From assembly GCF_000341285.1 (NCBI RefSeq), contig NW_005178436.1, forward strand, positions 62,001 to 126,000: a stretch of 64,000 nt of DNA, written 5' to 3'. The notes under the pieces are model-generated. The model had not been told where the DNA came from. It ran no database searches and worked only from the letters and a program-made list of their open reading frames with translations. Positions within the stretch are counted from its first letter, which is position 1. The number at the start of each line of letters is the position of its first letter. A program made the translations under genes and the position numbers. The stretch is from Galdieria sulphuraria (lineage: Eukaryota > Rhodophyta > Bangiophyceae > Galdieriales > Galdieriaceae). Positions 31,697-62,883 of the stretch are shown here, in pieces.

Positions 31697-32047
31697 TCAT
31701 GAGAAGAGAGGATAGATTTGGACTGGTCCCGAATAATTGGGGAAGTAGAATCCACTGTTTTGAGTATAAGTAGAATAACTGGAGGAATAATAAGGCGTAT
31801 AAGTTGGATAAGGTTGAACTGTCGGATAAGGCTGTACTGTTGGATACACATATGGCTGCACAGTTGGATACACCGGATAAGAATAGGAAGGATATACTGG
31901 ATAGGAATAGGAAGGATAACTGGAATATGTAGAATAAGAAGGATACCATCTTTGTTTTCCCATGATGGGAGATCCCATAGCAAGTATAACTATACATGAT
32001 AGTGTCAATACTACAATCGAATAAAGTCTATGCATCATCATCATCAT
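31697..32047 (-). CDS. Secreted Tyr/Pro-rich repeat protein
   Basis: A 116-residue protein with several adjacent ATG codons at the start, a hydrophobic signal peptide (YSIVVLTLSCIVILAMGS) and a mature part made almost entirely of Tyr, Pro, Ser, Thr and Val. Short tandem units are visible: PSYSYPVY twice, then PTVQPY three times. There is no cysteine and no recognised domain. The composition resembles structural extracellular matrix proteins (extensin-like, Tyr crosslinking), so a cell-wall role is a reasonable guess but only inference. The opposite strand is also open as an artefact of the repeats. Confidence 0.75.
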   Translation of the reverse strand: MMMMMHRLYSIVVLTLSCIVILAMGSPIMGKQRWYPSYSTYSSYPSYSYPVYPSYSYPVYPTVQPYVYPTVQPYPTVQPYPTYTPYYSSSYSTYTQNSGFYFPNYSGPVQIYPLFS

Positions 32048-56258: not shown

Positions 56259-56784
56259 TTAGGAACTCCATGCAGCGTAACATTGTTTGCCTGAAAAAAG
56301 GAAGATGTCAAACTTTGTAACCATTGCCTAAAGTCTTTACTCACAGTCTGTACAGCATTCAATAGGCACCAGAATGCATTGACTTGTTGGGGCATAACCT
56401 CCTCTGTTGACAAGTTGATTTTCTTCTGCATTCAAAAGGCGATAGCTGGATGAGCCATAAGAAGAAGATGATTGTCCGTAGGATGGAGGTTGAGAATAGG
56501 ATGGAGGTTGAGCATAAGTTGGGGCTTGGCTATAAGTTGGTTGAGAAATAGGGCAAAGTTCAGCATATTGACCTAGTTTACATAACCTTGTAAGCTAAAT
56601 TGGATGATACTCTCTTTTTTTTATACATACAAGTAGTCATACAGCATTCCTTGGAGGAAGAAGAAGAAGAAGAAGAAGAGTAACCTCCTCTCAAGAATTC
56701 ATTGGATGCCATTTCTGATACAACTGCTGCATATGATGCAACTACAAAGCTTAAGAAGATTACAGCAATTCCAAAAGACTTCAT
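56259..56784 (-). CDS. Secreted RGGY-CC protein A (novel family)
   Basis: Three exons: 56784-56631, 56572-56345 and 56290-56259, with introns of 58 and 54 nt. Both introns are phase 1 and fall after the T of a Cys codon. The 136-residue product has a signal peptide (IAVIFLSFVVASYAA), then module 1 (FLRGGY, a Ser run, KECCMTTCQYAELC), a Gln/Pro/Tyr/Ser-rich spacer (PTYAQPPSYSQPPSYGQ), module 2 (NRGGYAPTSQCILVPIECCTDCKQCY) and a short tail. The design is the same as RGGY-CC protein B about 5.5 kb to the right. I recognise no described family. A secreted, disulfide-linked cell-wall or extracellular protein is inferred. Confidence 0.8.
56656..56685. repeat. (GAA/TTC)-type trinucleotide run in RGGY-CC A
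   Basis: Encodes the Ser tract of module 1 in protein A; likely length-variable between strains. Confidence 0.8.
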
Positions 56785-56851
56785 ATTTAGCTTCACTAGA
56801 TACTTGGTTAAGTTTCAAAATATTCTATGAATAAACGAATTATAATGAAAT

Positions 56852-57161
56852 TCATGAAATGTTTTGCTCTTTTAAAGCTCTTTCTATGGAAACTGGCACG
56901 TCATTTTGCAAGAAATGTTTGGTTGAGAGCGATCCAAAGAAATGTCCAATCCAATCTCGTTTGAATGTGTTGGCAAACAGTAAATGAATGGTAGGTTGCT
57001 TCGTTATTTGAAAATTTACCGTCCTTTCACTCTCAGTAGAGTCGTTTTCGTTCCAATACAATTTGAGGGAGACTTTCTGGAGATATTTTGACCATACGAA
57101 GTTTACCTCTTGTGTTATAACTCATATATCTTGTAACTATGGTGATCAGTCCTTTGAACAT
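56852..57161 (-). CDS. Small unassigned ORF, possibly with a 34-nt intron
   Basis: An ATG at 57161 opens MFKGLITIVTRYMSYNTR, which reads on only briefly in its own frame. A GTAAAC donor directly after and an AAAG acceptor 34 nt on would join it to an 70-codon frame with YWNENDSTESERTVNFQITKQPTIHLLFANTFKRDWIGHFFG and end at 56852. The basic, hydrophobic start suggests a mitochondrial presequence; the rest has strand-helix texture like small mitochondrial ribosomal or respiratory proteins, but I cannot identify it. It may instead be two chance frames. Confidence 0.35.
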
Positions 57162-57963
57162 TTTGATAAAAGATAATCTTTTAGCCAAGAAAGTAATAGA
57201 AATATAAAAATATTTTTTATGCTTTTCTTTTACAAATTTCAGTATAAGCCTATCCGTCTTACTTGTACTTTGTCAGAATTGGCTTTTGTTTGACTCGCAC
57301 TAAAAGTAACTAACCTAATATTCTTCGAACAAGTGTGGCTACTTTATGCATAGCTTTGTGACTCCTTGAATTAATTTTCAAGGCCAAGCTAGAAAGTTAT
57401 TTTGAATATTTGAAATGTCTATACGAAGTACTCTTAGACGGGAAATAACTAATTTCCCATTCTAGTGTTGCACGAATTGATAAACCAAACAGAATGATCT
57501 AGAATCATTTTTGTTTGCTTATGGAATGAAAACCTAAAAGCGCTATTCTTCTGCAGTCTTTTCTTATTCTAATCCATGCAGACAAATAGTAGAGTTTGAT
57601 GTTCTCAGCGAATACTTTGCTAACTCAACGAACATTCTCAACTACGTGATTTAAATAATTTCTACCAAATCCATGAATACTTTTTTTACTTGTTATCTTG
57701 CATCTGCATACTTCCAAGTTTCATTACTTTCTATATGATGATTTGTGACAGTAGCATTTTTGAAATCTGGAGGCAAATTTCGGATATTGCACTCATTGAA
57801 TTGCTCGACGCTTTGCGGGGTATTGTTATTATTATTATCACCGCGACAACCAAAAAGAGAAGGTTATCCGATATTTTTTCAAATTTATTGCCTTTTTGAT
57901 TAGTGAAATAGAACACACCTCTAGTCTACTTTATTTTTCAAACCAATCACAAGTAGAAGAGAC
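57162..57963. other. Intergenic region upstream of importin-beta, no gene seen
   Basis: About 800 bp of A+T-rich sequence. Short open frames on both strands (57690-57916) look random. The importin-beta promoter must be in the right part. Confidence 0.6.
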
Positions 57964-60900
57964 ATGGACGTGACTCAACTTTTGCTCCATGCTCAGTCAG
58001 CGGACTTTAAATTGAGATATGAAGCAGAGCAAAGCTTGAAGCAACTTGAAGAAACCAACTTCCCCACTTTTGCAGCTAGTTTAGCAACAGAATTAGCGGA
58101 CCAGAGTAAACCTCCCTCTGTAAGACAGTTAGCTGGTCTTGTCTTGAAAAACAAATTTGATGCACGTTCCAGCGTAAGAAGAGAAGAACTTGCCAAGAGA
58201 TGGGCTGCAGTAGAAGATACTGAATCCAGACATAAAGTAAAGGCTTTGTTGTTGCAAACTCTTTCCTCTGAGGTGCAAGAGGCAAGACATACAGCCGCAC
58301 AAGTGGTTGCTGCTTTGGCAGTCATTGAGCTGCCATTGGGTTTGTGGAATGAGCTTATTGAAATATTATTGGGCTATGTAGTCAATCAGAATTCGAGCGA
58401 CGAACTTAGAGAATCGAGCATCATGACGCTGGGTTATATGTGTGAAACTGCTTCACAAAATGGAGAAGTTGATATTTTAAGTCAAAGAAGTAGTCAAATT
58501 TTAACTGCAGTAGTAAGAGGAATAGAAGAACCAGAAGAAAAGTTCAATATACGCTTTGCCGCGATATCTGCTTTATTGAATGCTATCGACTTTGCAAAGG
58601 CTAACTTTGAAAGTGAAACGGAAAGGACATATATCATGAATACAGTTTGTAAAGTTGCATCGGGTTCAGATGAGCGCATAAGGATAGTTGCATTTGAATG
58701 TTTTGTAAAAGTAAGTGCTCCAACTCAACTTGTGTTCATAAACTTAACTTGTAAAAGATTGCAGAGTACTATTATTCACATTTGGATGCTTACATGAACA
58801 TGTTGTTCCAATTAACTGTGAATGCTATTACTAATGATGTTGAAAGTGTAGCTCTACAAGCCATTGAATTTTGGACGACCATTTCAGAGGAAGAAATTTA
58901 TCGAAATCAGGAAGCCGAAGAATTGAATAAAAAGAGTTCCTCAATGGTACGTTGCTTTATTTCATTCTTTAGTATTTCATGAACTGTACTATCTTCACTT
59001 TAGAACTATATCGTTCAGGCATTGCCATATTTGTGTCCAGTCTTATTGCGTTGTCTTTTATTGCAAGAAGAAGATCAAGACGAAGATAGTTGGAATAGAG
59101 CTACTGCTTCAGGCACATGTCTTACGCTCGTTGCTCAAGCGAGTAAAGATGCTGTCGTTCCCTTTGTGATTCAGTTTGTACAAGAACATATTGGAAATGA
59201 TACTGATTGGCGTTCGAGAGAAGCTGCAACATTGGTAGGTATTTATTTTTCAAAGAAAGAGAATGTTTGGCACTTATGAGGAAAAGGCGTTTGGTTGTAT
59301 TTTGGAGCCAGATGGACCTTCTGCACAAGGATTGGAACCTCTTGTTACGGAAGCCGTTCCGATTTTGCTCAATCTATTGACAAGAGACTCAAATGTGGTG
59401 GTTCGTGACACTTCTGCTTGGACTCTTGGAAGAGTTTGTTCTTTAAGTAAAGAAGCAACGAAACGATATCTTCAACCATTAACGGAAGCGGCATTCAACG
59501 TAAGAGATGAACATTTGGTTCATTTTCAGACTTTTTGAGGGAATGATGATATTTAGGCTTTGGAACGAGATGAACCACGAGTAGCATCCAATGCAGCTTG
59601 GATCTTTTTGAATATTGCAGAGTCTTTTGAAGAGGACCATGACAAATTAAATAATGAGTTGGATATATATGTTGAGAAAATAATGTCTAGTCTCTTCTAT
59701 GCTGCTGCAAGAGAAGATGCAGCGGAACATCATCTTCAAGTTTCGAGTTATGAAGCATTTGCGCCACTGGTACATTGCGTTTCTGTTAGTTGTCAGAATT
59801 TTATATTTCAGGCATGTGTCGGTCTCATTAAGAATTTTTGGTCAATGACAAGTTGTGAATTGTTTAGAGTATACCTCTACTCTTAAGTAGATTGGAGGCA
59901 ACCTTTCAAATGGAAGTGAATGGAACCGAAGCAAGAAACGAACAAGCAGAAACTCAAGGCCTTATATGTGCTTCACTACAAGCAATCATACAACGCCTTC
60001 GACATGACGTTGTAGAATATAGTGATCGAATGATGCAGGCATTTTTATTTGTTTTATCTTCTGGATCTTCTTCTTCTGAACATGAAGATGCTTTGTTAGC
60101 TATAGGAAGCTTAGCAGATGCTATAGGAGAAGATTTCAACAAGTATATGTCTCACTTTGCTCCGTTTTTGAGTGTTTCTCTTCGAAATTGGGATCAGGTA
60201 AATAGATTTTGTTATGTATAATGATACAAACGATTTTCTAACAATTTACAAGGTGGACCTTTGTAAAGTGGCTGTAGGTGTAGTCAGTGATATCTGTCGC
60301 TCATTGGAACTTGGAATTCTTCCGTATGCTGATGATATTGTTATGTATTTATTAAGTGCCTTGAGTAGTCCAGAATTGGACCGAACAGTAAAACCTCCCA
60401 TTATCACATGTTTTGGTGATATTGCATTAGCGATAAGTGGAAAGTTTGAGCGTTATTTCTCTCATGTTATGCCAATATTACAACAAGTATGTATTATTCA
60501 ATATTTTTTGCCAGCAACTTAATTTGCATTGACTAGGCAGCTCAAGCTTCATTGGCTGTGCATGTATCTGAGGATGACTTTGATACTCAAGATTGGGTTA
60601 TTGAACTTCGAGAAAGCATTTTACAAACATGTACTTCCATTATTCAGGGCTTGAAAACGGATAATAGGTTTGCAATGATCCAAATTTTATTTTTGATAGA
60701 TTACAAAACTCAATTTGCTGGTCTTAGGCAAGAGTTGATTATTTCTGGAAGACATTCAGAATGGATACTTCAGTTCTGTGAACGTGTTATTCAAGAAAAA
60801 TTGTGTTGCACCGAAAAGTTGATTGCTGCTGTTGTTGGTGTGGTTGGAGATATTGCGTCTGCTCTGGAAAGTTTGCGTCCCACTTTGAAACAGATGCCGT

Positions 60901-60989
60901 GGATTCAGCAGATGATCGATCAGTGTTCAAAGAGTCCTGATAAAGATATCCAAAATGTGGCAATGTGGGCAAAAGGAATCGTATATTAA
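57964..60989 (+). CDS. KPNB1: Importin-beta (karyopherin beta-1)
   Basis: Nuclear import receptor that carries importin-alpha/NLS cargo through nuclear pores. About ten exons with 44-75-nt introns encode 19 HEAT repeats, starting MDVTQLLLHAQSADFKLRYEAEQSLKQLE and including the acidic loop RCLLLQEEDQDEDSWN (DEDDDWNP-like) that contacts Ran and importin-alpha, AFGCILEPDGP, VVRDTSAWTLGRVC and DDIVMYLLSAL. Around 60668-60727 the coding sequence contains a GT...TTAG segment of 60 nt without a stop; comparison with animal importin-beta (GLKGDQENVHPDV...) argues that it is an intron. Length after splicing, about 860 residues, is normal. Confidence 0.92.
60668..60727 (+). other. Stop-free 60-nt intron in importin-beta
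   Basis: Donor AG|GTTTGC, acceptor GTCTTAG, length divisible by three and no stop in the reading frame. Removal gives GLKTDNRQELIISGRH, which matches family spacing; retention inserts 20 hydrophobic residues. Confidence 0.65.
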
Positions 60990-61111
60990 AAGAGTTGAAG
61001 ATTGAACTTGATATCGTTTGCCTTGCGAGCAATAAAAAACAATACAATCGTTCACATTTATTTTTTTCTAAGAACACACTTTGGTATTCATGTAAGAGTA
61101 ACCGCTTTCAT

Positions 61112-61761
61112 TTATGGTATTATCGCTGACGTCGGAGCGGCAGTAGCAACAGAAGTCGGAACAGCAGAAGCAGCAGCCGTCGGAACAGCAGTTGTTGTTG
61201 GTGGTGCTGGAGGAACTAATAGAAACTCCAGAAACTGAACTACAGAGTTCCCAGCAGCAACGTCAGGAGAAATAACTGGGTCACCTTCGACAGAGTCTCC
61301 TACGATAACACTGTTAGTGATACTTTTTATTCATATAAGCTTCTCATACCAGTCGAATTTTTCGTAAAGTTAAGAGGCAGTCCTATCAAGGAAACAACGC
61401 CTGTTGTACCACTAGAAAGGGAACTAAACTCCACTGTTGTATTCACTGTACTAGCTACCAGTAAACGACCTAAAAAGTCTATTGCTCCAGTTACGTTTTG
61501 CTTGGCTGCACTTAGTGCACCAGTGGCGTTGGCTGATGAATTCTCCCAGGCAGTGTCATTTGAAGCAAGGAAAGTATAGTTCAGAAAGGTGTTGTTGTAT
61601 ATGCTTGTCAGATTGGTCAGTTCCATACTTTGTACGGTAAACGTATAGTCTTTTTGACTCTGTAGCAACGAATATATTGTTGTAGCATTAGAAGCCGCCA
61701 AAGTAACTCCTAACAAAACTGAAAGCCATATGAAACTAAGGTATATTTTCGTGAATGTCAT
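61112..61761 (-). CDS. Secreted fasciclin (FAS1)-domain protein
   Basis: Two exons joined by a 50-nt intron near 61300-61350 (GTATGA donor, CGTAG acceptor) giving KNSTGDSVEGDPVISPDV. The protein of about 200 residues has a signal peptide (LSFIWLSVLLGVTLA), one FAS1 domain with the first conserved block YTFLASNDTAWEN (cf. xTxFAPTNxAF) and second block NSVVQFLEFLLVPP, then a Pro/Ala/Thr/Ser-rich tail (APTSAIIP end). At least eight N-x-S/T sequons suggest heavy N-glycosylation. FAS1 proteins mediate adhesion in walls and matrices. No clear GPI signal is visible. Convergent with importin-beta. Confidence 0.82.
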
Positions 61762-62299
61762 TGTCTACACTGTAGTAGCAAGAACTTCAAAGGCACAATC
61801 ACCTTATAAGGAATGAAATCATTTATTACCACGTCAGAGTAAACAAATGACTTTCTTCATGTGTCGATTCAGAATCGAAAAGTCATCATATAAAAGAAGA
61901 TTAGGGGGCCACTTTGAGTTTTTCCAATGAATGATAAATCCTTCCGTTTCAAGTTATCAAGAGAGTGTAGGCTTGTATAAGTTTTATATAAATGAAATAA
62001 ACTATAAATACACTCCAAAGTCTGGTCCTTCGTTCTTCTTCCACTCATTTGTCTCAAAGAAAATGAATGAAGCGACACTAATTTTTGACCGATTGGTACA
62101 GGAAAAGACAAATTTGGCCGAGTCTGCAAAGGACAAGGATTTCGACTCCACTTGTTCAATCCACAGGCAGACACCACTGCAGAATGGAGGACGAGCTTCC
62201 ACGTTTCACCGGATCTTCCACAGACTATAGCTTTTTAAAGAAGCCAATTTTTCTTGATGCCCTACATAGAATTTGGTAATTTGTGAAATAAGTATCAAT
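61762..62299. other. Divergent spacer FAS1 / RGGY-CC B with unresolved small ORFs
   Basis: Promoter space for the two secreted-protein genes. All three plus-strand frames are partly open at 62064-62279. An ATG at 62064 reads MNEATLIFDRLVQEKTNLAE for 55 codons, and an overlapping frame ends at 62279, only 20 bp before the next gene. I cannot support a gene here, but a short spliced one or a uORF-bearing leader is possible. Confidence 0.4.
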
Positions 62300-62883
62300 A
62301 TGAAATCTGCAATCTTCGCTTTCCTTGTTGTAGCACTTTGCACTGTCGCTATCCAAGCTTCTCCTCTTGAAGACACTTTAGATGCTTTTATGCGAGGTGG
62401 TTACCAAGCACCTAGCCACGCACCAAGTCCCGGCTGTTGCAAATTGAGCTGTAAGTATGCAGAAGTCGTCAAGGGGCACTGCTGAACATCGACTAGGTCA
62501 ATACACTCAGATTTGTGAACAAGTGGTCCAGACTCAGCAAGTTATTCAGACTCAACAAGTTATTCAGACCCAACAAGTTATTCAGACTCAACAGGTTGTC
62601 CAAAGTCAACAAGTTTCATCAGCATACGGACGAAATGAGGTTTCAAGAGGTGGATATTCTTCCCAATCGGTAGCTCCTGCTCCAGCACCTTCTTGTGTTT
62701 CTGTCCCAGTAAAATGCTGTATCGAATGTAAGTGTATACGTCTAACAATCTTGTTGCCTTGTAACTTTGTAAATAGGCTCCTCTTGCTACCAGCAAGTAT
62801 CTCCAATTTCTACTCCCGTACAAGTTTCTCCTTCACAGCAAGTCTATCAAACACAACAAGTTTCATCGCAATCAGCATATTAA
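62300..62883 (+). CDS. Secreted RGGY-CC protein B (novel family)
   Basis: Exons 62300-62450, 62497-62727 and 62777-62883; introns of 46 and 49 nt, both phase 1 inside Cys codons. The product of about 162 residues has a signal peptide (FAFLVVALCTVAIQA), module 1 (FMRGGYQAPSHAPSPGCCKLSC), then QYTQIC, four tandem QTQQVI units, module 2 (SRGGYSSQSVAPAPAPSC ... VKCCIECSSCY) and a Gln/Val/Ser-rich tail. It is a paralogue of the gene at 56.3-56.8 kb: same order of motifs, same intron phases and positions, diverged spacer repeats. Secretion and disulfide bonding are inferred; function unknown. Confidence 0.82.
62527..62601 (+). repeat. 18-bp coding tandem repeat (QTQQVI)
   Basis: About four copies of an 18-nt unit, each CAGACTCAACAAGTTATT with small changes, encode the Gln-rich spacer of RGGY-CC protein B. 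Recent slippage is likely, since copies are nearly identical at the DNA level. Confidence 0.9.

What the first reader, a model, noticed from the sequence alone, without database searches (positions are those of the whole stretch)
56259..62883. A pair of paralogous secreted cysteine proteins defines an apparently undescribed RGGY-CC family
Genes at 56259-56784 (-) and 62300-62883 (+) encode signal peptide, hydrophobic-x-R-G-G-Y, CCxxxC-Q-Y-x-x-(L/I)-C, a low-complexity Gln-rich spacer, a second R-G-G-Y, (L/S)VP(I/V)xCCxxCxxCY and a short tail. Order, cysteine spacing and both intron positions and phases are the same although the spacers share no sequence. I know no named family with this design. 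The two lie 5.5 kb apart in inverted orientation with a secreted FAS1 gene nearby, suggesting a wall or extracellular-protein neighbourhood.
Basis: partly seen in the sequence, partly recalled or inferred. Interest (0 to 1): 0.85.

Follow-up and report, generated by a model that had tools for sequence, protein, structure and literature searches.

The report
Cysteine-rich secreted proteins of Galdieria algae
Two neighbouring genes of an acid-loving red alga encode small, probably secreted proteins with a fixed cysteine pattern and no relatives found outside that alga's genus; they are good candidates for cross-linked building blocks of its poorly understood cell wall.

Summary
Genes A (56784-56259, minus, 137 aa) and B (62300-62883, plus, 162 aa) splice as described: signal-peptide-like start, RGGY at residue 32, CCx3CQYx2(L/I)C, variable spacer, second RGGY, Cx6CCx2Cx2CY, and two phase-1 introns, each splitting a cysteine codon. 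A is identical to annotated Gasu2_16590; Gasu2_16560 is B minus three spacer repeats. G. partita and G. phlegrea each have one A and one B. No relative outside Galdieria was found.

The pair is not the whole story. The other 59 RGGY-encoding sites in the genome led to two more secreted-looking genes and, through them, four paralogues: two ~600-aa proteins of 14-residue Cys-Tyr repeats and four Gln-Cys-rich proteins. Homology of A/B to the long proteins rests on one short junction motif; to the Gln-rich set it was not shown. RGGY position after a signal peptide is not enriched over a control motif. The gene between A and B is a FAS1 protein, conserved beside A in three species. A 10-bp upstream motif, found post hoc, is shared by several of these genes.

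Best reading: structural wall proteins cross-linked by disulfides, perhaps dityrosine. Wall location and cross-linking are inferred, not shown.

The parts
56259..56784 (-). Gene A, 137 aa: exons 56784-56631, 56572-56345, 56290-56259
   Evidence: spliced; identical to Gasu2_16590
56573..56630 (-). Gene A intron 1, 58 bp, phase 1, splits the Cys codon after CCxxx
56291..56344 (-). Gene A intron 2, 54 bp, phase 1, splits the Cys codon after CCxx
62300..62883 (+). Gene B, 162 aa: exons 62300-62450, 62497-62727, 62777-62883
   Evidence: spliced; Gasu2_16560 is the same protein minus three spacer units
62451..62496 (+). Gene B intron 1, 46 bp, phase 1
62728..62776 (+). Gene B intron 2, 49 bp, phase 1
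62518..62615 (+). 18-bp tandem repeat (5.4 copies) coding the QTQQVI spacer of B
61112..61761 (-). Secreted-looking FAS1 protein, 199 aa, one phase-1 intron (61349-61300)
   Evidence: spliced; PF02469; orthologues Gasu2_16570, GpartN1_g1268, Galph1/5326
61862..61871 (-). TGAATCGACA, candidate shared upstream element between FAS1 and B
62068..62077 (+). TGAAGCGACA, second copy of the candidate element
57964..60989 (+). Importin-beta-like gene between A and FAS1 (neighbour, not part of the family); only its first ORF was tested
   Evidence: PF03810 in 57964-58797

Best explanation
A and B are anciently separated paralogues of a Galdieria-restricted secreted protein: two cysteine modules, each headed by RGGY, joined by a fast-changing spacer. 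Most likely they are structural proteins of the extracellular layer or wall. After secretion the cysteine modules form disulfides; nine cysteines in the mature chain, an odd number, leave at least one that could bond to another chain. The Tyr-rich (A) or Gln-rich (B) spacers give further contacts, possibly dityrosine. RG(G)Y is either a processing site freeing a GGY N-terminus or a turn in a small fold; the data do not decide. Shown: gene structure, cysteine frame, orthology in three species, no relatives elsewhere in the collections searched, linkage to FAS1. Inferred: secretion, wall location, disulfide polymers, dityrosine, processing.
For: Signal-like start and conserved cysteine frame in all rows with variable low-complexity spacers. 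No N-glycosylation sequon in any of the eight rows. FAS1 next to B, head to head, and linkage kept; FAS1 genes of G. partita diploid-only, class III peroxidases diploid-predominant (PMC13353863 section 16). Same genome holds six further Cys/Tyr/Gln-rich secreted-looking proteins with RG(G)Y-like starts, two of them with 14-residue Cys repeats; one shared junction motif with the long ones, 0 of 42 shuffles reaching it. Pooled Asp 0.6 and Asn 1.1 per cent against 4.7 and 4.7 in 13 window ORFs. Two sites of a motif shared upstream of FAS1/B, C26, C63, C60 and C7.
Against: No localisation, expression or proteomic data for A or B. The 50-55 per cent protein figure for the wall is for Cyanidium caldarium of uncertain strain, and 13 glycosyltransferases are diploid-predominant in G. 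partita, so its wall may be largely polysaccharide. RGGY after a signal-like start: 2 of 59 sites against 1 of 55 control sites. Profiles of A/B against the Gln-rich set are no better than shuffles (6 of 78). The motif is absent upstream of A, C41 and C33, and with one mismatch it is not enriched in the window (7 found, 9.2 expected). Gene order is kept in congeners anyway, and B is unlinked in G. partita.
Confidence: 0.5

Rival explanations
1. Soluble secreted metal-handling proteins: clustered cysteines (CCxxC, CCxxCxxC) bind metal ions in acidic, metal-rich springs.
For: CC and CxxC clusters conserved in all rows except the last Cys of one early-ending model.
Against: Only 6-7 per cent Cys, two RGGY and long spacers unneeded for metal binding; thiol-metal binding is weak at pH 1-3 (recalled); signal-like start unlike metallothioneins.
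Confidence: 0.15
2. Precursors cut at RGGY into two cysteine peptides that act as secreted signals or antimicrobial peptides.
For: RGGY at a fixed place (residue 32) about 12 residues after the likely signal peptide in all eight rows, and again before the second module; RG(A)Y-like variants at the same place in other proteins.
Against: AlphaFold model of A places the second RGGY in its better part (pLDDT 70-78), after a short helix, which would fit a turn (low overall confidence). Near-neutral to acidic mature proteins (pI 4.3-7.4), unlike cationic antimicrobials. Long spacers.
Confidence: 0.15
3. Cell-cell recognition or adhesion proteins with a length-variable spacer, for example in mating.
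For: The B spacer differs by three 18-bp units between two G. sulphuraria assemblies; FAS1 domains are adhesive in other lineages (recalled).
Against: Outside the spacer those two B proteins are identical; tandem repeats change length without selection, and an assembly error cannot be excluded; one copy of each per species in what was found.
Confidence: 0.1

Closest known systems
Coccidian oocyst wall proteins: Cys-rich OWP/COWP and Tyr-rich wall proproteins (PMC7389338, passages seen)
   Same: Works-like comparison: secreted Cys-rich proteins that polymerise by disulfides beside Tyr-rich proproteins that are cut and cross-linked by peroxidases in a tough wall
   Different: No sequence match in Pfam for A, B, C26 or C63; cysteine spacing here is CCx3Cx5C and Cx6CCx2Cx2C, or 14-residue repeats; cross-linking not shown
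FAS1 (fasciclin) wall proteins
   Same: Neighbouring gene, secreted-looking, reported diploid-specific in G. partita
   Different: A and B have no FAS1 domain
Cyanidium lysyl oxidase-like wall system (PMC6508830, passages seen)
   Same: Oxidative cross-linking of a protein wall in a sister lineage, as proposed there
   Different: Lysine-based; the gene is absent from Galdieria according to PMC13353863; A and B have only 3 Lys each
Metallothioneins and hydrophobins (recalled)
   Same: Small, cysteine-rich
   Different: Cys order here is CC-C-C-C-CC-C-C (nine); Cys content far below metallothioneins; start is signal-peptide-like

Membership tests
Galdieria A/B family (this report) | RGGY at residue 32, CCx3CQYx2(L/I)C, second RGGY, Cx6CCx2C | tested here: met
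   8 of 8 rows of alignment A3
Galdieria A/B family (this report) | Two phase-1 introns splitting Cys codons | tested here: met
   both window genes; DNA of the other species was not available
Galdieria A/B family (this report), membership of C26/C41 | CC-CQY and VPxCC frame | tested here: not met
   14-residue Cys repeats instead; only the junction motif aligns
Galdieria A/B family (this report), membership of C63/C60/C7/C33 | profile similarity to A/B above shuffles | tested here: not met
   6 of 78 shuffles reach the score
Coccidian oocyst wall proteins | sequence similarity to described families | tested here: not met
   no Pfam match for A, B, C26, C63
Coccidian oocyst wall proteins | disulfide or dityrosine polymer in a wall | not testable with these tools
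   needs biochemistry
Metallothionein | very high Cys content, no signal peptide (recalled) | tested here: not met
   6.6 and 6.2 per cent Cys; signal-like start
Hydrophobin | eight Cys in the order C-CC-C-C-CC-C (recalled) | tested here: not met
   nine Cys, different order; no Pfam match
FAS1 (neighbour gene 61761-61112) | PF02469 above its cut-off | tested here: met
   23.7 bits against 22

The most novel reading that the evidence does not exclude
Galdieria, reported to lack lysyl oxidase, builds its acid-proof wall from its own class of Cys-, Tyr- and Gln-rich secreted proteins (A, B, two 14-residue-repeat proteins, four Gln-rich ones), set by disulfides and class III peroxidases and switched on with FAS1 in the diploid phase through a shared TGAAKCGACA element: a peroxidase/disulfide route in place of the lysyl-oxidase route of Cyanidium and Cyanidioschyzon, parallel to coccidian oocyst walls.
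Probability: 0.2. Interest if true: 0.8.

Novelty: new variant of a known kind. Interest (0 to 1): 0.5.

Why it matters
Cyanidiophyceae have lost cellulose synthases and are thought to have an unusual, partly protein wall (PMC13353863), but which proteins build it in Galdieria is open. This names candidate genes with orthologues in G. partita (GpartN1_g1270, g3735), where diploid/haploid RNA-seq exists, so the question becomes directly testable.

Tried and rejected
More A/B-like genes in this genome: three motif patterns and two protein searches gave none. VPxxCC: 3 hits, A, B and C7:115671, which is not a coding match. CCxxC-plus-donor: 18 hits, two of them A and B; the other 16 were fetched and read, none a member. 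CQYxxLC: 3 hits, A, B and C3:229069, rejected. Protein searches with A and B found only each other's exons. In one search my expression for the VPxxCC locus had one base too few; one search corrected it.

'RGGY after a signal peptide is itself significant': rejected as a stand-alone claim. 2 of 59 RGGY sites outside A/B lie 20-55 codons after a signal-like start, against 1 of 55 control sites (YGGR with AGR codons only).

No relatives: viral contigs with the A/B profile (10 stretches matched a pattern, none confirmed), prokaryote contigs with C26 (8 matched, none confirmed), PDB sequences, folds. The PNAS 2022 Hirooka paper is not held. A first shuffle run timed out and was repeated smaller.

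Promoter motif: found after looking. Of 8 upstream regions of 400 bp, 4 shared the 10-mer TGAATCGACA, while 60 simulated sets reached at most 3; for 7-, 8- and 9-mers the observed maximum was within the simulated range. It was then widened to TGAAKCGACA and 500 bp. Three carriers (C63, C60, C7) are paralogues. With one mismatch the window has 7 sites against 9.2 expected. The probability printed rests on a zero background rate and is to be ignored. An out-of-sample test on peroxidase promoters could not be run.

Full report
What is there. The window lies on contig C40 (150 kb) of a 12.0-Mb genome in 102 contigs. Protein A is letter-identical to Galdieria sulphuraria Gasu2_16590, so the window is from that species or a near strain. 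Gene A runs 56784-56259 (minus) and gene B 62300-62883 (plus). Each has three exons; introns are 58 and 54 bp in A, 46 and 49 bp in B. All four are phase 1 and each splits the codon of the cysteine after a CC pair: after CCxxx at intron 1, after CCxx at intron 2. That suggests the two-module protein arose by internal duplication (inference; no score was computed).

Reality of the family. The A/B profile found 9 proteins and the wider profile 11 (which scored only the 7987 candidates sharing most words). The named ones are Galdieria proteins (sulphuraria, partita, phlegrea); the rest are unnamed JGI or lgn proteins. Two orthologue groups, A and B, each occur in the three species, so the duplication predates their split. 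In all eight rows of A3, RGGY at residue 32, CCx3CQYx2(L/I)C, the second RGGY and Cx6CCx2C are kept; the last cysteine is missing only in the phlegrea A model, which ends early. Group profiles align with probability 98.8, E 1.1e-16. P0008 and P0009, from contigs of 1093 and 1358 bp, have exons 1 and 2 joined; P0010 and P0011 lose the match at or near the intron. Whether the former are transcripts is not known. Library matches were weak only (best E 0.077) and there was none in PDB sequences.

Wider set. I listed all 63 RGGY-encoding sites (36, 27). Four are A/B; the other 59 were fetched and read. Three of them lie in two genes with a signal-like start. The first, C26:81801-79894 (599 aa), has RGGY after the start and again at its second half. 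It has 37 cysteines, and 26 Cys-Cys intervals are exactly 14 residues; unit consensus YPCPTYYTVQxxxx in the first half and xxCxKYVxxQxIxx in the second. Its paralogue C41:93727-91855 (589 aa) has RGAY and ERGY instead. The second, C63:94878-95680 (211 aa), is Gln-rich; its paralogues on C60, C7 and C33 have RWH, RGY and RGY at that place. C26 and C63 have no Pfam match. Exon models of these six are mine, by hand. Similar proteins without RGGY and unlike C26 or C63 would not have been seen.

How far these belong together. Against a single family: 2 of 59 RGGY sites follow a signal-like start against 1 of 55 control sites; A/B against the Gln-rich set is no better than shuffles (6 of 78); long against Gln-rich is weak (1 of 93). 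In favour: A/B against C26/C41 aligns over 17 columns at the internal junction S-(S/A)-Y...V-x-RGGY, probability 18-19, 0 of 42 shuffles reaching the score. I claim homology for A and B, possible homology for C26/C41, and likeness in composition for the rest. Pooled, the eight have 0.6 per cent Asp and 1.1 per cent Asn against 4.7 and 4.7 in 13 window ORFs, and 7.3 per cent Cys, 13.4 Tyr, 16.7 Gln; A alone has 2.9 per cent Asn. Low Asp and Asn would suit life at pH 1-3, as Asp bonds are acid-labile (recalled).

Neighbourhood. Between A and B lie an importin-beta-like gene (PF03810) and a FAS1 protein (PF02469, just over cut-off). FAS1 orthologues: Gasu2_16570, GpartN1_g1268, Galph1/5326. A orthologues: Gasu2_16590, g1270, 5328. 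B orthologues: Gasu2_16560, g3735, 5325. Judged by gene numbers and contig lengths, A-FAS1 linkage holds in three of three species and B-FAS1 in two of three; in G. partita B is on another contig. PMC13353863 section 16 (part 1 of 2 read) says that FAS1 genes of G. partita are expressed only in diploids, that its four class III peroxidases are diploid-predominant, and that LOX is absent from Galdieria. It does not name A, B or g1268 in what I read. This genome has nine PF00141-matching stretches, not sorted by class.

Candidate regulatory element. TGAAKCGACA occurs twice in the 538-bp FAS1-B intergenic region and nowhere else in the window (shuffles expect 0.27, and 3 of 100 had two or more). 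It occurs in none of 129 other fetched loci (112,674 bp; the three loci of C26 and C63 left out). It lies within 500 bp upstream of C26, C63, C60 and C7, and is absent upstream of A, C41 and C33: 5 of 8 regions with FAS1-B counted once. The motif was chosen after seeing the data, three carriers are paralogues, and allowing one mismatch removes the enrichment in the window. It is a lead.

Interpretation. The most likely role is structural: cysteine modules that lock into a disulfide network, with spacers free to vary. The Tyr-rich spacer of A and the Tyr-rich long proteins would suit peroxidase cross-linking, as described for coccidian oocyst walls (PMC7389338, passages). Location, cross-linking and processing are not shown. 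Literature: 'Galdieria' with 'RGGY' gave 0 papers. Nine other searches listed none whose title or abstract start describes these proteins. They cover only open-licence PMC papers, listings were capped, and supplements could not be read.

Noticed in passing
31697-32047 (minus): Another ORF with a signal-like start, 116 aa, built of Tyr-Pro repeats (PSYSYPVYP, YPTVQPY) without cysteines; no Pfam match. A possible further wall protein.
   Followed up: partly
L101, L126, L127, L128 (C63, C60, C7, C33): All four Gln-Cys-rich genes lie within 10 kb of a contig end (3.2, 5.5, 8.9, 9.7 kb), while at most 17 per cent of the assembly does; they may be subtelomeric.
   Followed up: partly
L128 (C33:149827-150568): The C33 copy ends earlier (173 aa) than its closest paralogue C7 (206 aa), with further stop codons where C7 has its Gln-rich tail.
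   Followed up: no
62518-62615: The 18-bp repeat of B has three units more here than in Gasu2_16560: strain polymorphism or assembly difference.
   Followed up: partly
L047/L071, L082/L088, L084/L099: Among the RGGY sites, three pairs of loci on different contigs share the same or nearly the same sequence around the site, as dispersed repeats would; L088 has a masked stretch.
   Followed up: no
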